Virus record (IMG/VR): IMGVR_UViG_3300043775_000829
Coordinates: 1-25,045 of that record
Strand: one strand, 5' to 3'
From: a virus
DNA: 25,045 nt
The first letter of the stretch is position 1. The number at the start of each line of letters is the position of its first letter. Below the pieces are notes generated by a model. That model did no database searches. It saw only the letters and a program-made list of their open reading frames with translations, and was not told where the DNA came from. The position numbers and the translations under genes were made by a program. Of this stretch, positions 16,015-24,241 are shown one piece after another.

Positions 16015-16260
16015 ATGCAAACGGAACTTCCCGATCATGCTCTCGAAGAGTATGTCATTCGGGCCTTCAATTCATCGCGGAGACGCGGCGCAATCGATAG
16101 GCTCGACGTAGCTCAACAATTATTGCCTTACGGCGCCCACCCTGCTTATTGGCAGGCAGCAAAGAAGATTGCCGACCATGTGCTTGATCACATGGCGATG
16201 CAATCCAAACTCTATAAAGATGACCAAGGCTGGTGGTATTTAGTCGGAGGCATTCGATGA
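16015..16260 (+). CDS. Small protein upstream of the primase, possible DNA binding
   Basis: This is an 81-residue protein starting at ATG 16015 directly after the hairpin's T-run. It is helical and basic in the first half (YVIRAFNSSRRRGAI), then VAQQLLPYGAHPAYWQAAKKI, and ends with a strand pair (LYKDDQGWWYLVGGIR) like the wing of a winged-helix domain. The TGA overlaps the primase ATG (ATGA), so the two are coupled. A role in priming or regulation of the primase-helicase is suggested by context alone. Confidence 0.55.
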   Translation: MQTELPDHALEEYVIRAFNSSRRRGAIDRLDVAQQLLPYGAHPAYWQAAKKIADHVLDHMAMQSKLYKDDQGWWYLVGGIR

Positions 16261-18230
16261 ATATCGAAGAAGCCCGGCAACGCTTGCCATTACCAGAACT
16301 CATGGCGAAACTAGGTTTGGGAGACTATGCCAAATCAAAATCCAAATCACCATTCCGAGATGAAAAGACGCCATCATTTGGCATCTACAACTTAGACGGT
16401 CGGTGGAGATGGAAAGACCACGGCACAGGCGAAGGTGGAGACGAGATCGATTTCCTAGCCAAGCTCGAAAACAAGAGCAACCATGATGCCATGCTGGCTT
16501 ATTCTGAACTTGCAGGAATGCCGATCCACGAGAAGCGGCCAGAACCCGCACGGTTCAAGATAAAGACGAGCACTCCGACAGCATCCGACTGGAGCAAGTA
16601 CAAAACAGCGGCAACAGATGAGTTCCTGCAAGCATTAGCAGGACAGAGGAGCCTATCTTTCAACATAATGAAGATTGCTCGCGACAATGACATCCTTGGC
16701 GCATCTGGAGATCAGCCGGCATTCAAATCTGGAGATGGCGCTCACGTCCGTTGCGATAACGGCGCATGGAGATTTGAGCCAAAGGGAACGCAAAATGTTC
16801 CACTTGTATTTGGTAATTCAAACTCAAAGAACGTCTACTTTTTTGAGTCTCAATGGGACTTGCTCGCGATTGCCGATAAGCTCGGTGATGATTGGAGTAG
16901 TGTTTTATGGGTAGCATCTCGCGGGGCAAGCAACGGCAAATGTATTGCAGAGTTTTCTCAAGACCGACAGGTCTATGCTTTCCCGCAAAATGACGAACCA
17001 AAAAAGGATGGCAAAATACCTTCCGAAATCTGGATGCAAGACGCCATCTCATCATGCAAAACAATTCTTCGGGTCAGGACTCCATCAAATTTTAAGGACG
17101 CAAATGATTGGGTAGAAGCAAAAGACACAAACAAAAAAACAATCATTTCGGCAATTAAGAACGCTACCGATCCATCGATGGTCGGAGTTGAGATGCACTC
17201 ATTTGAGGAACTATTCCAATTCGTTCCAAAGGAGGACAACACAACCTTGCTAGGAGATAGATGGGTATGCCAGGGCGGTCAGTTGCTCATCGTTGGGCAG
17301 TCCGGCGTAGGCAAATCATCACTGACGGTGCAGGCATCGATGTTCTGGGCATTAGGACTGCCGTTCTTTGGTATTAAGCCGAGGCGACAACTCAAAAGCC
17401 TATTCATCCAAGCCGAGAACGACACAGGCGACATGGCCGAGATCGTGCAAGGCGTCATGTCCTATGTCGTCGCAAATGCTGGGATGCCACAAGCGCAAGC
17501 AGTAAAATTGCTGACAGAAAACATTACATTTGCCCGCGTGACTTCTCAGACCGGTGCGGACTTCATCGACGTTGTCGGCAGGCTACTCGACAAGAAAGGC
17601 GATTGTGACTTGGTATTTGGAGATCCGCTCTTGAGCTATATCGGCGACGATATAAGCCAACAAAGCGTGGCAAGCGCATTCCTTCGCGGTCTCTGCAACC
17701 CTATCGCATTTCAGCGTAAATTTGCATGGGTATGGAGTCACCACACCGGAAAGCCGCAAGGCGACTCGAAGAGCCGGGCGCATTGGAACACAAACGACTT
17801 CGCCTACGTCGGACTAGGATCATCCGAACTCACGAACTGGGCTAGGGCGATATGCGTTCTCCAAACAACAAAGGAGGATGGCACATTCCGGCTCCTATTA
17901 GCCAAACGTGGCCGTCGCGCTGGCGTAGTCGATGAAATCGGCGATACGACCACCCAGATCGGTTTAAGGCACGGCCAAGTTGGCTTGTATTGGGAACCAT
18001 GTGCGCTGCCAACAGAAGAAGAAGCATCAAAGGAGAAGGGGAAACCCGGAAGACCGAAAGCATTAAATGAAATCCAGAAACAAGAAGTTATTGCCTTCAT
18101 TGCAACATTCCCAGAAGATGACCATTCCAAGTGGCAGAAGTGCTTGGATAAATTTAAGCTGTCTTGTCATATAGAAACCATAAAAAATGTATGGAAAGAC
18201 AAGCTCAAAACTGACACTACAAAAAATTAA
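16257..18230 (+). CDS. Primase-helicase: degenerate zinc domain, TOPRIM and RepA-like ATPase
   Basis: The 657-residue protein has three parts. Residues 1-85 resemble the CHC2 primase zinc domain (SPFRDEKTPSF), but the zinc Cys/His residues are absent. Residues about 190-290 are TOPRIM-like: VYFFESQWDLLAIAD gives the Glu, and YAFPQNDEP stands where the Asp pair is usual. About 340-570 is a RecA-fold ATPase with Walker A GQSGVGKSS (about 346-354), DLVFGDPLLSYIGDD (about 450) and WVWSHHTGKP. This fits RepA/AAA_25-type replicative helicases. The C-terminal 70 residues look like a helix-turn-helix extension. It should unwind DNA and may prime it. Confidence 0.87.
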   Translation: MNIEEARQRLPLPELMAKLGLGDYAKSKSKSPFRDEKTPSFGIYNLDGRWRWKDHGTGEGGDEIDFLAKLENKSNHDAMLAYSELAGMPIHEKRPEPARFKIKTSTPTASDWSKYKTAATDEFLQALAGQRSLSFNIMKIARDNDILGASGDQPAFKSGDGAHVRCDNGAWRFEPKGTQNVPLVFGNSNSKNVYFFESQWDLLAIADKLGDDWSSVLWVASRGASNGKCIAEFSQDRQVYAFPQNDEPKKDGKIPSEIWMQDAISSCKTILRVRTPSNFKDANDWVEAKDTNKKTIISAIKNATDPSMVGVEMHSFEELFQFVPKEDNTTLLGDRWVCQGGQLLIVGQSGVGKSSLTVQASMFWALGLPFFGIKPRRQLKSLFIQAENDTGDMAEIVQGVMSYVVANAGMPQAQAVKLLTENITFARVTSQTGADFIDVVGRLLDKKGDCDLVFGDPLLSYIGDDISQQSVASAFLRGLCNPIAFQRKFAWVWSHHTGKPQGDSKSRAHWNTNDFAYVGLGSSELTNWARAICVLQTTKEDGTFRLLLAKRGRRAGVVDEIGDTTTQIGLRHGQVGLYWEPCALPTEEEASKEKGKPGRPKALNEIQKQEVIAFIATFPEDDHSKWQKCLDKFKLSCHIETIKNVWKDKLKTDTTKN

Positions 18231-18293
18231 AAAGAATTACAAAAAATGGTATTTTTTTTACCCCATGAGATCCACAAAAAATTACCCACAAAA

Positions 18294-18326
18294 AACCCCC
18301 CTATAAGGGGGGGGGTTATTTTTTTT
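18294..18326 (+). terminator. Strong intrinsic terminator after the primase-helicase
   Basis: AACCCCCC (18294-18301) pairs with the following G9TT run (18307-18317) around TATAA, followed by ATTTTTTTT. The G-run of nine is striking. Upstream, AAAAAAT and ATTTTTT near 18241-18257 form another small AT-only dyad with a GGT loop just after the primase stop. Confidence 0.75.
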
Positions 18327-18358
18327 GTTGGGCAATTTGTTATGTGGGACTCGGCGCC

Positions 18359-18381
18359 GCAAAAAAACAATTGTTTTTTGC
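18359..18381 (+). repeat. Perfect AT-rich palindrome in the primase-mom intergenic region
   Basis: AAAAAACAATTGTTTTTT (18362-18379) is a perfect 18-base palindrome centred on CAATTG, flanked by GC on both sides with one extra A on the left. It lies in a 177-base gap between the primase-helicase and the mom-like gene, about 40 bases before the latter. It could be a regulator-binding site, a second terminator or part of a replication origin. The sequence does not decide. Confidence 0.6.
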
Positions 18382-18407
18382 AGTCGCCTTGTCGATAGGG
18401 TGACGAA

Positions 18408-19094
18408 ATGAACATGGAACCGTCCATAATTGTTAGCCAAATACCAAGCAAGGAAGCTGAACCGTGGTTACTCGTTCGACATTATGCAAAAAGAAAATGC
18501 CCCATTTCCTATGCTTTCGGCGCATTCATAAACAATGAAATAATTGGAATTGTTACATTCGGAACTCCACTATCATCAACCCTTCGCGATGGAATATGTG
18601 GAAAAGATAATTCTTCTTTTGTTTTAGAATTAAATAGACTTTGTTGCAATACTCAAAAAAACCTTGCATCAATATTGGTCGGTCGGTCTTTGGCTATGTT
18701 GCCACATCCATCAATTGTTGTTTCTTATGCTGACACTGGACAAGGCCATGTCGGGTATGTGTATCAAGCAACAAATTTTATTTATACAGGATTGTCCGCT
18801 CAATTTAAAGATCCAATGGTAAAGGGTATGGAAAACAAACATCACACTACAATAGGAGACGAGGGAAGAGGACATCCATCAAGAGTTGAGTTTCTTAGGC
18901 AAAAATATGGAAATGAGAATGTTTATTATATCCAAAGAAACAGGAAGCATCGATATGTCTTTTTTTGTGGATCTAAAACACAAAAAAGAAATTTTATCAA
19001 ATGTCTGAAATATTCAGTTCAACCATATCCAAAAGGCGAGACTCAGAGATATGACGCATCTGGAGAAATTGAAACACAATTAACTTTATTTTAA
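18408..19094 (+). CDS. mom: Mom-like DNA adenine modification protein
   Basis: The 228-residue protein has the Mom pattern of phage Mu and its relatives: LVRHYAKRKCPISYAFG (about 22-38), a GNAT-like strand IIGIVTFGTP, LELNRLCC, then VSYADTGQGHVGYVYQA (about 106-122) and NFIYTG. The HY pair, SYAD and GYVYQ are conserved in the family. Mom proteins modify the N6 of adenine in phage DNA and protect it from restriction enzymes. AGGGTGA a few bases before ATG 18408 may serve as ribosome binding site. A Mu-type com gene is not seen upstream. The gene is much more AT-rich than its neighbours, pointing to acquisition. Assignment is strong; the exact chemistry is not known. Confidence 0.87.
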   Translation: MNMEPSIIVSQIPSKEAEPWLLVRHYAKRKCPISYAFGAFINNEIIGIVTFGTPLSSTLRDGICGKDNSSFVLELNRLCCNTQKNLASILVGRSLAMLPHPSIVVSYADTGQGHVGYVYQATNFIYTGLSAQFKDPMVKGMENKHHTTIGDEGRGHPSRVEFLRQKYGNENVYYIQRNRKHRYVFFCGSKTQKRNFIKCLKYSVQPYPKGETQRYDASGEIETQLTLF

Positions 19095-19106
19095 ACACCT
19101 AACACT

Positions 19107-19146
19107 TTTGCAGGCGAAGATACGTGGTGTGTTGGACGCCTGCAAA
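19107..19146 (+). repeat. 10-bp inverted repeat downstream of mom
   Basis: TTTGCAGGCG (19107-19116) and CGCCTGCAAA (19137-19146) are perfect reverse complements separated by a 20-base loop. No T-run directly follows, so it is not a typical terminator. The 160-base gap 19095-19254 also holds CTGTTTTTCTTGG at 19157-19169 and an A-rich leader. Confidence 0.65.
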
Positions 19147-19254
19147 TACGCCACTGTTTTTCTTGGTGGGAGCGGCAGACTGCGCCCTTTATTCAGAGCC
19201 AAAAAACGAGAAACTATTTGCAAAAGAAAAAAACTATGCGAAAAAAAGTATTCG

Positions 19255-19695
19255 ATGCACGACCAGACGCGAGACGCGGCGGAATACGACGAAGCCAGCT
19301 ACACGCCCGACTTCTACAGCTTCGACGATCCGACTGCCGGTCACGCATTCCGCATGACGGCGTACCGCGAAGCCAGCGAGAAACTCCTGGTTGTGCTCAA
19401 CAAAACGATATCGTTCTTGGCAGAACACGGCTACAGCCGGAGCAAGACTTTGTGGGGCGTGGCGTTCGCTCTTGGTCATCCGCTAACCGCAGGGATGTCG
19501 ATGCTAGAAGCAGGACGCGAACTAGGCTGCACAAAACAGGCGATCTCGAAGATAGCAATGGACTTTCTCGACACGACAGGCCTACCTCCTAGCACATCTT
19601 TGAAAAGCGAGGAAGCACGCAACACCTACCGAAAAACAAACACCAACAAATATGGAACAAAACGAAATCACGGCACTAACCCTGCCAGTCATTGA
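19255..19695 (+). CDS. Helix-turn-helix DNA-binding protein
   Basis: From ATG 19255 the protein has 146 residues. Central helices (FRMTAYREASEKLLVVLN, FLAEHGYSRSKTLWGVAFA) precede a helix-turn-helix: MLEAGRELGCTKQAISKIA at about 83-101, followed by MDFLDTTGLPPSTSLKSEEA. The arrangement recalls a sigma region 4 or resolvase-type HTH. It probably binds DNA as a regulator or in packaging, as it lies upstream of the methyltransferase and terminase genes. An upstream in-frame ATG at 19108 lies in the inverted repeat and would add a 49-residue basic stretch not expected of the family. The tail overlaps the next gene by 44 bases. Confidence 0.65.
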   Translation: MHDQTRDAAEYDEASYTPDFYSFDDPTAGHAFRMTAYREASEKLLVVLNKTISFLAEHGYSRSKTLWGVAFALGHPLTAGMSMLEAGRELGCTKQAISKIAMDFLDTTGLPPSTSLKSEEARNTYRKTNTNKYGTKRNHGTNPASH

Positions 19696-20188
19696 AACAG
19701 AGATCCGCACCGCATACGCGGAGGCCAACGCCTTAGCCGTAACGGCCAAAGGCAATGCACGCGCTGCCGTCTTACGCATGGCAGACTGCGGGCAGATGCT
19801 CATGGTCGCCAAGGATCACGTGCGCGGCAACCGCAACGAGTGGCTTGCATCGCTTGGCATTGATCCAGACAAGGCGGCCAAGGCAATTCACCTAGCACGC
19901 AACCGTGATCAGCTTGAGCTAGACCTATGGCCTGCCGACATGGCCAAGCTCGGAGCGCAGATGCTCGGCATCCTACCGCCTCCAGGTTCTTCGGGACGTG
20001 AAGAGAACGACCCAGAACGCACCACGGGCGCAAGCACGCATTGGCTGACCTATGCAGGGAAACTGCAACGCTCGTTCGCTGACCTCTTCACACGCAAGCC
20101 GGTGGAACAATGGCGGCACGACGAGAGAGAATCATTAAGGATTGCAATTAAGCCAATCGCAGAACTTTACGCCAAGTTAAATGATTGA
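19652..20188 (+). CDS. DUF3102-like protein, possibly DNA associated
   Basis: The 178-residue protein has an Ala-rich helical first half. It contains AVLRMADCGQMLMVAKDHV and NEWLASLGIDPDKAAKAIHLARN, the 'G..L...K......WL' pattern of DUF3102 and related phage proteins, which often carry a small helix-turn-helix. The second half has LPPPGSSG as a linker and a Trp/Arg-rich helical end. ATG 19652 follows an A/C-rich leader and overlaps the previous gene. It probably works with the ParB-domain methyltransferase downstream, judging by adjacency only. Confidence 0.6.
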   Translation: MEQNEITALTLPVIETEIRTAYAEANALAVTAKGNARAAVLRMADCGQMLMVAKDHVRGNRNEWLASLGIDPDKAAKAIHLARNRDQLELDLWPADMAKLGAQMLGILPPPGSSGREENDPERTTGASTHWLTYAGKLQRSFADLFTRKPVEQWRHDERESLRIAIKPIAELYAKLND

Positions 20189-20233
20189 GAATGTTATGAA
20201 AAAATTAAGAGATTCCTATAACTAGCTCTCCCC

Positions 20234-20264
20234 TACGGGTTAACATACTCTCTTTGCTCCCGTA
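20234..20264 (+). repeat. Short inverted repeat upstream of the methyltransferase
   Basis: TACGGG (20234-20239) and CCCGTA (20259-20264) are complementary around a 19-base loop in the 113-base gap 20189-20301. The rest of the gap is AT-rich and contains no gene I can support. It may be an operator or leader hairpin for the methyltransferase operon. Confidence 0.45.
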
Positions 20265-20301
20265 TGAATAGTCTAAAAAATCTGAGTTATAAAATTACCA
20301 C

Positions 20302-21507
20302 ATGAAGATCGAACAAATACCAACCGAGAAGCTCATTCCTTACGCTCGAAACGCAAAAAAACATGACGCCGCGCAGGTCTCAAAACTAGCCGGAAGCATT
20401 CGCGAGTTCGGCTTCAACAACCCGGTGCTCATCGACAAAGACAACGGTATCATCGCCGGGCATGGTCGCGTGATGGCTGCACAAAAGTTGGAACTAAGGG
20501 ACGTGCCTTGCATTAGGCTCGGCCATCTCACCGATACGCAACGCAAAGCCTACATCCTTGCAGACAACCGACTGGCTGAGTTAGGAGGTGGGTGGGATGA
20601 GGAGTTGCTAAAACTTGAAATCAAAGACATCGACTGGGGCGAGTTGAAAGAAATTAGCGTTGATGATTTTAATTTCGGAGAAATTGATTTCGAGGAAGAA
20701 AAGGAAGAACCAAAGAGCGACGTCGACGCCGACCCCCAGATCGACAAGGCCGATGAACTCCGCGCCAAGTGGGGCGTCGAGCCGGGGCAACTTTGGGAGC
20801 TTGGGGATCATCGGTTGCTGTGCGGGGATAGCACGAAGAAGGAGGATGTAGATAGAGCATTGGGGGGGGCTTCGCCGCTGCTTATGGTTACTGATCCGCC
20901 GTATGGGGTGAACTACGATCCCAACTGGCGCAACGAGGCCGACCGCGCCAACGGCAAGCCCTACGGCGCGAGCGCCGTAGGGCTTGTGACAAACGACACG
21001 CGCGCTGACTGGCGAGAGGCTTGGGAACTTTTCAACGGAGACGTTGCCTATGTTTGGCACGCAGGACTGTTTGCGCCAACCGTTGCAGAAAGCCTGGTTG
21101 CCTGCGGGTTTGAGCTTCGCTCCCAGATTGTTTGGGCAAAAAGCAACTTTGCCATTGGGCGCGGAGACTACCACTGGAAACACGAGCCTTGTTGGTATTC
21201 AGTGCGGAAAGGGAAGAAGGGCCACTCAAAAGGAGACAGGTCGCAAACAACTTTGTGGGAAATTGACAAGCCCCAAAAATCCGAGACGGGCCACTCCACG
21301 CAAAAGCCCGTCGAGTGCATGGCTCGCCCGATCCGCAATCACGACAGTGAGTTTGTTTACGAACCCTTCAGCGGCAGCGGCACAACCATCATCGCCTGCG
21401 AGCAACTTGGCCGCAAATGCCGCGCCATCGAAATCTCGCCCGCCTATGTCGCCGTGGCGATCCAACGCTGGGTGGACGCCACCGGCAAAGAACCGCGCAA
21501 ATTGTAA
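20302..21507 (+). CDS. ParB-domain / DNA adenine methyltransferase fusion
   Basis: This is a 401-residue fusion. Residues 1-90 are a ParB/Srx-like domain (IPYARNAKKHD, then IREFGFNNPVLID, then GIIAGHGRVMAAQKL). An acidic linker (about 110-150) follows, then a methyltransferase with DPPYG at about 198-202 (motif IV) and FSGSGT at about 356-361 (motif I). Motif IV before motif I is the beta-class order of N6-adenine or N4-cytosine methyltransferases. ParB-MTase fusions are common in phages. It probably methylates phage or host DNA for restriction evasion or regulation, without a visible cognate endonuclease. Target sequence is unknown. TAA overlaps the TerS ATG. Confidence 0.92.
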   Translation: MKIEQIPTEKLIPYARNAKKHDAAQVSKLAGSIREFGFNNPVLIDKDNGIIAGHGRVMAAQKLELRDVPCIRLGHLTDTQRKAYILADNRLAELGGGWDEELLKLEIKDIDWGELKEISVDDFNFGEIDFEEEKEEPKSDVDADPQIDKADELRAKWGVEPGQLWELGDHRLLCGDSTKKEDVDRALGGASPLLMVTDPPYGVNYDPNWRNEADRANGKPYGASAVGLVTNDTRADWREAWELFNGDVAYVWHAGLFAPTVAESLVACGFELRSQIVWAKSNFAIGRGDYHWKHEPCWYSVRKGKKGHSKGDRSQTTLWEIDKPQKSETGHSTQKPVECMARPIRNHDSEFVYEPFSGSGTTIIACEQLGRKCRAIEISPAYVAVAIQRWVDATGKEPRKL

Positions 21508-22100
21508 TGCCAAAGAAACCCGCACCGCCGCAACCCGCATCCGATCTCCAGGGGAAGATCCGCGAAGCCGAGTTTAAAAACATCCTGCAAAAACTGAAGG
21601 ACGGCAAGACGCTGACGGCGCGAGAGTCAAAGATTGCGGCAGAGTTTGCGGCAAAGCGGGACGGCAAAGGGCTAACGCAGGCCGAACTTGCGGCGGCCTG
21701 GGGCATGACGCAGCCTAACATTCACAAAATGGTCAGGCAGGGAATGCCTATGACCAGCATCGAGGCCGCTACGGAGTGGAGGAAGGACTGGCTCGAAACG
21801 CATGGGCGAGGCGACACCGCACCGGAGAACATCCAGCAGGCGAAGCTACGGAAGACACTACTGGAATGCGAGAAGATCGAGTTTGCGCTTTCGGTTGATC
21901 GCGGTGAATACATCAAAAACGCCGTTGTGCGCGAAGCAGGCATCCGCATCGGAGCGATCTTCTCGGCCAAACTCGCGGCATTGGTCAACGACGCCAGCGG
22001 CGCGTTGGCCGGACTCGACGAAGCAAGCTTGAGAAAGAAGTTGCACGAGCGCACGCAAGCGATCCTTGCCGAGATCCGCAACGAATTAGAAAAGGTATGA
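21507..22100 (+). CDS. Terminase small subunit
   Basis: From ATG 21507 (TAATG overlap) the protein has 197 residues. After a basic Pro-rich start, LTQAELAAAWGMTQPNIHKM forms a helix-turn-helix at about 56-75, resembling the Nu1-type DNA-recognition domain. The C-terminal half is helical (AKLRKTLLECEKIEFALSV, then REAGIRIGAIFSAKLAAL), as expected for the part that binds TerL and oligomerises. It recognises the packaging site and recruits the large subunit encoded at 22511. A longer upstream frame lies inside the methyltransferase. Confidence 0.85.
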   Translation: MPKKPAPPQPASDLQGKIREAEFKNILQKLKDGKTLTARESKIAAEFAAKRDGKGLTQAELAAAWGMTQPNIHKMVRQGMPMTSIEAATEWRKDWLETHGRGDTAPENIQQAKLRKTLLECEKIEFALSVDRGEYIKNAVVREAGIRIGAIFSAKLAALVNDASGALAGLDEASLRKKLHERTQAILAEIRNELEKV

Positions 22101-22315: not shown

Positions 22316-22514
22316 GCAAGAACTCTGGAAAATTTACTCAAAACGCAATCCTTCATTCGACGGCGAAGGCAACGTGACGCTGTCCGCTGCCGGACTTCGC
22401 AAGATGTTTGAAACGACGTGGGAAATTGCTATGTATGACGGAGAAGAAGAGCCGAGTTCTAAACAACCGTCTCCGAATGTAGACGCGCTCAAACAGATTT
22501 TCGGAATGCGATGA
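22308..22514 (+). CDS. Small protein in the terminase operon
   Basis: This is a 68-residue protein starting at ATG 22308 with TKQELWKIYSKRNPSF, then VTLSAAGLRKMFETTWEIA and an acidic Ser-rich linker. The motif 'ELW..Y..RNPSF ... LS..GL.K.F...W' recurs in small proteins beside phage terminases. It may help assemble the packaging motor. It overlaps TerL by four bases (ATGA). Confidence 0.65.
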   Translation: MTKQELWKIYSKRNPSFDGEGNVTLSAAGLRKMFETTWEIAMYDGEEEPSSKQPSPNVDALKQIFGMR

Positions 22515-24241
22515 ACCCACTAGCACAAGGCATCCGCGACGGAATCAAACTCGCGTTCGACGGCACGATCTTAGACTGGGCAAGCGACCACGTTAACTTT
22601 CCGAACTCGGATCGCGCTTCGCGCTTCGATCCGTCGGTTGCGCCGTGGCTCAACGCGCCGCTGCTTGCGGCAAGTGATGACGAGACGACGCAAGTATTTC
22701 TTCGCGCCCCGACTGGGGGCGGGAAAACTACCATGATGGAAACTTTGGCCTGTTTCATTGTTGCACAGAAGCCTGGGCCGACTTTGTTCGTCGGTCAGAC
22801 TGACGACATGGTCAAGGACTGGACGGAGTCGCGACTGCTTCCGATCTTCAACGAATGCCAGCCGGTCAAAGACCTGTTCCCAGAAGACCGGCACGCTCTC
22901 AGAAAAACGACTATACTTTTCCCACATATGGTTCTCTTCGCAGGCGGCGCGAACATGACGAACCTTCAAGAAAAATCCATGCGCTACTGCATCGGCGACG
23001 AGGTCTGGCGGTGGAAAAGCGGGATGATAAAAGAGTTGAAGGCGAGACACCACGACCGCTGGAACCGCAAAACGCTTCTCGTCTCGCAGGGATGGGACGC
23101 AGGGCACGAGGCCGACGCTGAATGGGACAGCGGAACGCGAGAAGTCTGGGGCTGGACTTGTTCCCATTGTGGGAACTGGCAGAGATACCTATTCGATCAG
23201 ATCGAATATGTGACCGAACGCGACGACAAGGGCGGCATCTTGTGGGACAAGGTGCAGGACTCGGTCGTTATGAAATGCGAGCATTGTGAAACGCGCTATA
23301 AAGACGACGCAAGCACTAGACGAAACCTTGCAAATACTGCAACTTACCGTGCACTTAACCCACATCCGGTGCGAGGGCATCGCTCGTTCGAATATCCCGC
23401 TTATGCTGTGTGGTGGATTCCGTGGTTTTCTATCGTCAAGGAATGGATCGAGGCCAACGAAGCCAAGTCATCCGGCAACCTAGAGCCGCTCAAACAATTT
23501 ATTCAGAAGCGCAAGGCTCAGACTTGGCAGGACGAAGTCACGAGCGACTTGCCAGAAATCACGACCGGCGACTACGCGAAGGCCGAATACTTGGAAGGGC
23601 AGAAGATCGACGGCGAACACAGACGCTTTATGTGCGTGGACAAACAGCGCGACCACTTTTGGTGCATCGTCCGCGCCTTCCGCGTGGACGGCTCTTCGAT
23701 GCTCTTGCACGAGTCGCGACCGCTGACGTGGGAGACGCTCGACGCCATCCAACAGCAGTTCGACATCATGCCTAGGTGTGTTGTAGTGGATGCTGGCTAT
23801 GACACGCCATTGGTTTACGAACAATGCGCTCGGCGTGGGTGGACGGCTTCGCACGGATCGGGGCAGGACGGCTTTTATCATATCGAAAGTGGCAGGCGCA
23901 CACGTCGCTTTGTTTCCAAGATCGAAGGAGCGCAAGCCGGAAGCGATGGACTGAAGTGCGCTTATTTCTTTTTCTCGAACGAAGGCATCAAGGACAAACT
24001 CGCTTCACTTCGCCAGGCTGACGCCACGCCGAAGTGGGAAGTTGCGCGGGATGTGTCCGAAGACTATCGCAAGCAGATGTTGTCGGAGATGAAGAAGGAC
24101 GTGACCAATTCAAAAACCAAACAAGTCGAGCAACGATGGGTTCGCATTGGCGGCAGGCCGAACCATCTTTGGGACTGCGAGTGCATCGCGCTTGCGTCCG
24201 CTATGCTGGCAGGGGTTTTGCCGATAGGCGCGGAGAGCTAG
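22511..24241 (+). CDS. Terminase large subunit, GpA type
   Basis: The 576-residue protein is a phage terminase GpA family member (lambda gpA-like). Walker A is APTGGGKTT at about 66-74. GDEVW at about 167 resembles Walker B. A zinc ribbon has CSHC near 216 and CEHC near 255. The RNase-H-like nuclease shows FMCVDKQRDHFW (about 372), VVVDAGYDT (about 425) and HLWDCECIALA (about 552). It translocates DNA into proheads and cuts concatemers. Together with the gpW-like and portal genes downstream, this places the phage in the lambda-like packaging class. Length is close to that of lambda gpA (641), slightly short. Confidence 0.93.
   Translation: MNPLAQGIRDGIKLAFDGTILDWASDHVNFPNSDRASRFDPSVAPWLNAPLLAASDDETTQVFLRAPTGGGKTTMMETLACFIVAQKPGPTLFVGQTDDMVKDWTESRLLPIFNECQPVKDLFPEDRHALRKTTILFPHMVLFAGGANMTNLQEKSMRYCIGDEVWRWKSGMIKELKARHHDRWNRKTLLVSQGWDAGHEADAEWDSGTREVWGWTCSHCGNWQRYLFDQIEYVTERDDKGGILWDKVQDSVVMKCEHCETRYKDDASTRRNLANTATYRALNPHPVRGHRSFEYPAYAVWWIPWFSIVKEWIEANEAKSSGNLEPLKQFIQKRKAQTWQDEVTSDLPEITTGDYAKAEYLEGQKIDGEHRRFMCVDKQRDHFWCIVRAFRVDGSSMLLHESRPLTWETLDAIQQQFDIMPRCVVVDAGYDTPLVYEQCARRGWTASHGSGQDGFYHIESGRRTRRFVSKIEGAQAGSDGLKCAYFFFSNEGIKDKLASLRQADATPKWEVARDVSEDYRKQMLSEMKKDVTNSKTKQVEQRWVRIGGRPNHLWDCECIALASAMLAGVLPIGAES

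What the first reader, a model, noticed from the sequence alone, without database searches (positions are those of the whole stretch)
18408..21507. Two independent DNA-modification genes, Mom-like and ParB-methyltransferase, in one phage
A Mom-like gene and a beta-class ParB-MTase fusion lie within 3 kb. Both act on phage DNA bases, by different chemistry, with no restriction endonuclease nearby. Together they may give layered protection against host restriction. The Mom-like gene is strongly AT-rich, unlike the rest, implying it was gained. No com gene, which Mu uses to control mom, is recognisable.
Basis: partly seen in the sequence, partly recalled or inferred. Interest (0 to 1): 0.6.

Follow-up and report, generated by a model that had tools for sequence, protein, structure and literature searches.

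The report
Phage with swappable DNA-modification gene slots
This virus of (probably) verrucomicrobial bacteria really carries a Mom gene and a ParB-methyltransferase gene predicted to chemically mark its DNA, and in dozens of near relatives the same two places hold other DNA-marking genes or nothing, so it looks like a phage that trades disguises against bacterial restriction enzymes.

Summary
18408-19094 is a true Mom (Pfam E 3e-35; best PDB fold match is Mu Mom 8bv8, well ahead of other GNATs; active-site residues kept). 20302-21507 is a ParB-domain plus beta-order N6/N4 methyltransferase. No restriction enzyme or Com was found. The two are not a general pair: Mom is in 0 of 40 other ParB-MTase contigs, an N6/N4 MTase in 3 of 40 other Mom contigs. 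A cos site (20238-20249) lies between them, so in the virion they sit at opposite ends. Across 111 contigs of the same phage group, both genes occupy swap slots. The mom slot holds mom, C5 or N6/N4 methyltransferases, small ORFs or nothing; all 14 occupants over 150 aa modify DNA. Beside cos, a ParB domain stays 78-98% identical while the catalytic part changes (MTases, glycosyltransferase, TET/JBP oxygenase). Window mom is 99.7% identical to a relative's whose other genes are 83-88% identical: recently exchanged. Best reading: interchangeable anti-restriction modules. Swapping of phage MTases is known (Bellas 2020); Mom alternating with MTases and the constant ParB cap appear new. Chemistry and protection are untested.

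The parts
16260..18230 (+). primase/helicase-like gene (CHC2-type zinc ribbon + AAA_25); stands where most relatives have a DnaB helicase
   Evidence: Pfam AAA_25 E 2e-13, Zn_ribbon_DnaG 1e-5; relatives carry DNAB or PRIM at this place
18294..18326 (+). strong intrinsic-terminator-like hairpin (CCCCCC..GGGGGGGGG + T8) between primase and mom; present in all PRIM-type relatives examined
18382..18410 (+). remnant of the 3' end of a replaced dnaB gene (..LVDRVTK*), with a Shine-Dalgarno-like AGGGTG before mom; left border of slot B
   Evidence: near-identical to the dnaB tail in L002/L003; present in all PRIM-type relatives examined
18408..19094 (+). Mom: GNAT-fold adenine-modification enzyme (by family); occupant of slot B
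   Evidence: PF25680 E 3e-35, phrog_1384, fold match to 8bv8, invariant H25 Y26 R77 S88 Y119 and near-invariant D109
19102..19210 (+). conserved, covarying stem-loop element at the right border of slot B (not Mom-specific)
   Evidence: 97.4% of cells paired, 6 pairs with both-side changes, 0 of 500 shuffles; no Rfam family at curated thresholds
19258..19695 (+). 145-aa backbone gene with a helix-turn-helix-like stretch (ELGCTKQAISKI), no family
   Evidence: conserved in relatives spanning the locus
19652..20188 (+). 178-aa backbone gene of unknown function, last gene before cos in the window
20238..20249 (.). cos: 12-nt cohesive end GGTTAACATACT (physical genome end)
   Evidence: 25 of 111 relatives' contigs start and 12 end at this sequence or a close variant
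20302..21507 (+). ParB-domain + beta-order N6/N4 DNA methyltransferase; occupant of slot C, first gene after cos
   Evidence: phrog_498 E 2e-128, PF01555, DPPY and FSGSGT; N-terminal 140 aa conserved and C-terminal part exchanged in relatives
20862..20869 (+). G8 tract between the ParB and MTase domains (possible slippage site)
21507..22100 (+). terminase small subunit
   Evidence: phrog_57 E 3e-11
22511..24241 (+). terminase large subunit, lambda GpA type
   Evidence: PF05876 E 9e-29, PF20454 E 1e-19

Best explanation
The phage belongs to a group of cos-packaging phages, probably of Verrucomicrobiota, whose conserved backbone holds fixed slots where DNA-modification genes are exchanged by homologous recombination at short conserved borders. 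In this genome slot B, just after the replication genes, carries mom, and slot C, between cos and the small terminase gene, carries a ParB-methyltransferase. Mom would convert adenines of the phage DNA to an N6-acyl (carbamoylmethyl-type) form in a loose sequence context. The methyltransferase would put a methyl on A-N6 or C-N4 at its own motif, with the constant ParB domain perhaps presenting DNA to whichever catalytic module is attached. Modified virion DNA would then be poor substrate for host restriction enzymes, and shuffling slot contents would let the population track the restriction systems of its hosts. Shown here: gene identities, Mom fold and active-site conservation, slot structure, recent exchange of mom, cos position. 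Inferred: enzymatic products, expression in the lytic cycle, protection, role of ParB.
For: Mom identity. MTase identity and motifs. Slot B in 37 relatives plus the window: mom in 6 contigs (5 distinct alleles), C5 MTases in 5, N6/N4 MTases in 3, small ORFs or nothing in the rest; all 14 occupants over 150 aa are DNA-modification enzymes. In other variable gaps of the same genomes 0 of 6 gene clusters over 150 aa matched a DNA-modification family, against 4 of 4 gene families in slot B (exact p about 0.005, my arithmetic). Slot C: ParB-N6/N4 MTase, C5 MTase, TET-associated glycosyltransferase, TET/JBP oxygenase plus FkbM-type methyltransferase, or nothing in 26 of 38 contigs with visible cos; ParB N-terminal part 78-98% identical while the C-terminal part is 37-52% identical or absent. 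Exchange: window and L002 mom 685 of 687 nt identical, flanks 82.8-88.2% (p below 1e-24). Host hint: the only bacterial relatives of the phage's Sak4-like protein are in Verrucomicrobiota MAGs.
Against: No modified base has been measured. Mom and ParB-MTase do not co-occur generally (0 of 40 and 3 of 40; fragmentary contigs). Some slot C occupants are not proven DNA modifiers (ABC-ATPase plus GNAT in L218, PAPS-reductase-like protein in L188). Slot A is mixed (helicases, unknown proteins, MTases). A strong terminator precedes mom in the window and no sigma-70 promoter was found, so its expression is unexplained. Control gaps were few.
Confidence: 0.72

Rival explanations
1. The ParB-methyltransferase is a packaging factor: sitting between cos and the terminase genes, it marks or holds the cos region and helps control cutting, as Dam methylation does at the pac site of phage P1 (from memory).
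For: First gene after cos, directly upstream of TerS; a homologue also precedes the terminase in Myoviridae sp. ctOK67; the ParB domain is conserved while the catalytic part changes.
Against: 26 of 38 relatives with visible cos have no gene between cos and TerS, and the MTase part is replaced by unrelated enzymes, so it is dispensable for packaging.
Confidence: 0.12
2. The two genes are independent accessory genes with no joint role: ordinary mosaic phage content that happened to be sampled in one contig.
For: Mom and ParB-MTase are each common in phages (281 and 748 records) and do not co-occur generally; MTases are the commonest genes in flexible phage islands (Bellas 2020, PMC7468147).
Against: The slots are functionally restricted, and other mom carriers of the group also have a second MTase (L002 ParB-MT-A70; L003 N6/N4 MTase).
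Confidence: 0.3
3. The 18408 gene is another GNAT acetyltransferase that acts on protein, tRNA or a small molecule, not on DNA.
For: GNAT fold; weaker fold matches to the tRNA cytidine acetyltransferase TmcA and to polyamine acetyltransferases.
Against: Sequence and structure both place it with Mu Mom by a wide margin (8bv8 E 5e-11 against 1e-4; profile E 5e-19), with Mu's residues conserved including S124 (S88 here).
Confidence: 0.04
4. Mom here is poorly expressed or silent: the swap of DnaB for the primase brought a strong terminator upstream and broke the dnaB-mom coupling seen in relatives.
For: Terminator-like hairpin 18294-18326, no sigma-70 promoter; in L002 and L003 the mom start overlaps the dnaB stop.
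Against: The reading frame and active site are intact; PRIM-type relatives keep intact MTases at the same place behind the same hairpin (L270, L272), so the slot is presumably expressed; a conserved palindrome follows the terminator.
Confidence: 0.12

Closest known systems
Mom of phage Mu (PF25680; PDB 8bv8)
   Same: Family, GNAT fold, conserved H/Y/R/S/D/Y residues; lies near the right end of the linear genome (about 1.1 kb from cos here)
   Different: About 26% identity; no com gene; sits after the replication genes, not behind a late C-activated promoter; AT-rich; exchanged with DNA MTases in relatives
Other phage Mom-like proteins (Roseobacter phage CRP-902 47%, Bacillus phage Riggi 41%, Listeria A511 37%)
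   Same: Near-full-length homologues without a Com partner annotated beside them
   Different: Different genomic settings; slot exchange was not examined there
Polaribacter phage P12002L Mom with adjacent DNA methyltransferase
   Same: Mom and an annotated DNA MTase in one phage, neighbouring genes
   Different: Different phage; Mom 27% identical; not examined whether the MTase has a ParB domain
phrog_498 ParB-methyltransferases next to terminase (e.g. Myoviridae sp. ctOK67, 54%)
   Same: ParB-like domain plus N6/N4 MTase, upstream of terminase genes
   Different: Here the MTase part is one of several exchangeable catalytic modules behind a constant ParB domain
Flexible modules of cryoconite phages (Bellas et al. 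2020, PMC7468147)
   Same: Near-identical backbones with recombining modules in which DNA MTases are the commonest known gene
   Different: Slot B here is restricted to DNA modification and includes Mom; slot C includes TAGT and TET/JBP enzymes. That paper was only checked by keyword passages
Anti-CRISPR loci of Mu-like Pseudomonas phages (from memory)
   Same: One fixed locus that holds interchangeable counter-defence genes
   Different: Here DNA-modification enzymes, not anti-CRISPR proteins

Membership tests
Mom family (PF25680) | Whole-length match above the curated cut-off | tested here: met
   122 bits against 27.1, residues 7-209 on profile 2-202; Mu Mom scores 253 on the same model
Mom family (PF25680) | Mom fold, closer to Mu Mom than to other GNATs | tested here: met
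   AlphaFold pLDDT 86.5; best PDB match 8bv8 E 5e-11, TM 0.67; next 1e-4
Mom family (PF25680) | Active-site residues of Mu Mom (H/Y pair, R, S124, D, Y) | tested here: met
   H25, Y26, R77, S88, Y119 invariant and D109 near-invariant in alignment A1 with Mu Mom. Which residues are catalytic rests on memory, except S124 (8bv8 title: inactive mutant S124A)
Mom family (PF25680) | N6-carbamoylmethyl modification of adenine in DNA | not testable with these tools
   Needs LC-MS or sequencing of DNA
Mu-type com-mom operon | Overlapping upstream com gene (zinc-ribbon translational activator) | tested here: not met
   No PF10122 match (no control rang) and no cysteine-rich overlapping ORF
Beta-class amino-methyltransferase (PF01555) | DPPY (motif IV) before FxGxGT (motif I) | tested here: met
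   DPPY 198-201, FSGSGT 356-361, invariant among six homologues
ParB-MTase fusion (phrog_498) | N-terminal ParB/sulfiredoxin-like domain fused to the MTase | tested here: met
   phrog_498 E 2e-128 residues 1-397, phrog_620 ParB E 4e-46; Pfam ParB_N 24.2 bits, under its 26.3 cut-off
Restriction-modification system | Cognate restriction endonuclease beside the MTase | tested here: not met
   No REase family among scanned neighbours
Recombining flexible module (phage genomic island) | Different occupants between conserved flanks in near-identical phages | tested here: met
   Slots B and C across the 111 contigs

The most novel reading that the evidence does not exclude
These phages run a dedicated, exchangeable DNA-modification system. 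A constant ParB DNA-binding cap next to cos is fitted with alternative catalytic modules (N6/N4 MTases, or a partner C5 MTase, TET-associated glycosyltransferase, or TET/JBP oxygenase plus methyltransferase), while a second slot takes Mom or unrelated MTases. Some of these genes are switched on and off by length-variable poly-G tracts (G9/G10/G11 in the slot-B C5 MTase). The phage population would thus carry combinatorial and phase-variable DNA disguises.
Probability: 0.3. Interest if true: 0.7.

Novelty: new variant of a known kind. Interest (0 to 1): 0.5.

Why it matters
Mom has been studied mainly in Mu, as a late, Com-controlled gene. Here it sits in a slot after the replication genes where unrelated DNA methyltransferases take its place in near-identical phages. 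That is independent genetic evidence that Mom and methyltransferases fill the same role, and it gives a natural panel of near-identical genomes with different modification genes in which to test what each protects against. The constant ParB domain in front of changing catalytic modules raises a testable idea: a DNA-presenting adaptor for phage DNA modification.

Tried and rejected
Mom and ParB-MTase as a conserved pair: rejected as a general rule (0 of 40 and 3 of 40; records fragmentary, and no control genome rang for Mom). The dnaB tail before mom as proof that mom came together with dnaB: rejected, because PRIM-type relatives without mom have the tail too. Rfam hits at 18200-18398: all below gathering thresholds and overlapping the poly-C/poly-G terminator, treated as chance. 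First ORF picks for L262 and L284 in slot B were misleading (wrong or shifted frame, no or partial Pfam hit); three-frame translation shows a C5 MTase, intact in L262 and frame-broken at a poly-G tract in L277 and L284. Host search with the large terminase in bacterial genomes found nothing. An excess of G/C runs of 8 or more was rejected: 23 found, 30 expected; only the length variation at one homologous site is notable. A 2009 comparative paper and the 2020 Mom enzymology paper are not in the library.
Full report
Identity of the two genes. The 228-aa protein at 18408-19094 matches Pfam's Mom family at 122 bits (cut-off 27.1) and the PHROG 'Mom-like DNA modification protein' at E 1e-51. Mu Mom itself matches the same Pfam model. 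In an alignment with Mu Mom and ten others the invariant residues include H25, Y26, R77, S88 and Y119, with D109 nearly invariant. S88 lines up with Mu S124, the residue changed in the 'inactive mutant S124A' crystal structure 8bv8; that the others are Mu's reported active-site residues is from memory. A profile of 42 relatives finds 8bv8 by sequence at E 5e-19. The AlphaFold model (pLDDT 86.5) has 8bv8 as its best PDB match at E 5e-11, against 1e-4 for the next GNATs. The 401-aa protein at 20302-21507 is a ParB-domain fusion to a beta-order N6/N4 methyltransferase (phrog_498, E 2e-128; DPPY before FSGSGT). No restriction enzyme and no Com was recognised.

Physical layout. Relatives' contigs begin at GGTTAACATACT or a close variant in 25 of 111 cases and end there in 12. 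This 12-nt sequence lies at window 20238-20249, just before the ParB-MTase and the small and large (lambda GpA-type) terminase genes. I read it as the cohesive end. The window spans joined ends, so in the virion mom (about 1.1 kb from the right end) and the ParB-MTase (about 50-65 bp from the left end) are at opposite ends.

Slots. Searches with the large terminase and the 178-aa gene, together with the mom search, gave 111 distinct contigs of one phage group (the 80 best terminases are 97-100% identical to the window's). Their shared backbone is Sak4-like protein, exonuclease, SSB-like protein, DnaB or primase/helicase, slot B, 145-aa gene, 178-aa gene, cos, slot C, TerS, TerL. Slot B can be read in 37 of them plus the window: mom in 6 contigs (5 distinct; L003 and L004 are identical), C5 MTases in 5, N6/N4 MTases in 3, and small ORFs or nothing in the rest. 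Every occupant over 150 aa (14 of 14) is a DNA-modification enzyme by family. In other variable gaps of the same genomes, none of six gene clusters over 150 aa matched such a family. Slot C is empty in 26 of 38 contigs with visible cos. Elsewhere it holds ParB-N6/N4 MTases, C5 MTases, TET-associated glycosyltransferases, a TET/JBP oxygenase with an FkbM-type methyltransferase, or an ABC-ATPase/GNAT protein. Where a ParB domain is present its first 110-140 residues are 78-98% identical to the window's (100% in L175, the same virus), while the catalytic part is 37-52% identical over most of its length or replaced. Slot A, between the SSB-like gene and DnaB, is mixed: an MT-A70 protein in L002, helicase plus MTase in L003, helicases and unknown proteins in others.

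Mom was exchanged. Window and L002 mom differ at 2 of 687 positions, while the compared genes on either side are 82.8-88.2% identical (Fisher p below 1e-24). L003 carries a mom allele only 77% identical although the genes after it are 89% identical and the first 66 nt of mom are 97% identical. Alleles are thus swapped through conserved borders: the dnaB tail and start of mom on the left, a conserved stem-loop element on the right. On a tree of the two downstream backbone genes, slot B content needs at least 10 changes and mom presence at least 3; the tree is poorly resolved. All five mom alleles are AT-rich (35.7-40.1% GC) relative to their contigs, unlike the MTases that use the same slot (46-59%), which fits an outside origin. 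Direction of transfer cannot be told.

Is the pair meaningful? In general, no: 0 of 40 other ParB-MTase records carry Mom, and 3 of 40 other Mom records carry an N6/N4 MTase, with the caution that these are fragments. Polaribacter phage P12002L has an annotated DNA MTase next to Mom. Within this group, other mom carriers do have a second MTase elsewhere (L002, L003), while L211 has none in the slots visible.

How it likely works. From the known chemistry of the families, Mom would make an N6-acylated adenine and the MTase an N6-methyladenine or N4-methylcytosine at a motif. Neither product was tested. Sharing one slot with MTases is indirect evidence that Mom serves the same purpose, protection from restriction. 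In relatives L002 and L003 mom is joined to dnaB by a start/stop overlap, so it would be expressed with the replication genes, unlike late, Com-dependent Mu mom. In the window that link is broken and a strong terminator precedes mom, so how mom is expressed is open.

Known or new. Mom-like genes (281 phage records) and ParB-MTase relatives (748 records) are common, and recombining MTase modules are known (Bellas et al. 2020, PMC7468147). I found no held paper describing Mom alternating with MTases at one locus or a constant ParB domain with exchangeable modification modules; the searches were few and the library is partial. I rate it a new variant of a known kind. The host is probably verrucomicrobial.

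Noticed in passing
window 19102-19210; homologous places in L181, L187, L209, L264 and others: A conserved RNA-like element of about 110 nt with compensatory base changes (97.4% paired, 6 pairs with both-side changes, 0 of 500 shuffles) between slot B and the 145-aa gene; no Rfam family.
   Followed up: partly
L262:4345, L277:6431, L284:8319, L285:3419 (reverse complement): A poly-G tract of length 10, 9, 11 and 10 at the same place in the slot-B C5 methyltransferase; the frame is intact in L262 and broken in L277 and L284. Phase-variable tract or homopolymer assembly error.
   Followed up: partly
window 20862-20869: G8 tract inside the ParB-MTase gene between the ParB and MTase domains, also in L175.
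   Followed up: no
window 18382-18410: Remnant of the end of a dnaB gene left where a primase/helicase gene replaced DnaB; present in all primase-type relatives examined.
   Followed up: yes
L187:8123-8974, L209:2587-3438, L229:1837-2847, L253:2173-3177, L275:2896-3747: Many relatives carry a 283-336 aa protein with an HNH-like C-terminal stretch (no Pfam hit) between the 178-aa gene and TerS, apparently on the right side of the genome before cos.
   Followed up: no
L176, L201, L282, L285: Contigs in which genome ends of this phage group are joined head to head near cos, probably assembly chimeras.
   Followed up: no
L186:680-2196 and L218:583-1665: Slot C contents suggesting DNA hypermodification: TET/JBP oxygenase with FkbM-type methyltransferase, and an ABC-ATPase fused to a GNAT domain.
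   Followed up: partly
L289:8001-14303: A Verrucomicrobia MAG contig holds a distant copy of the replication module with a C5 methyltransferase-like gene of the slot-B type lying between the SSB-like and DnaB genes.
   Followed up: partly
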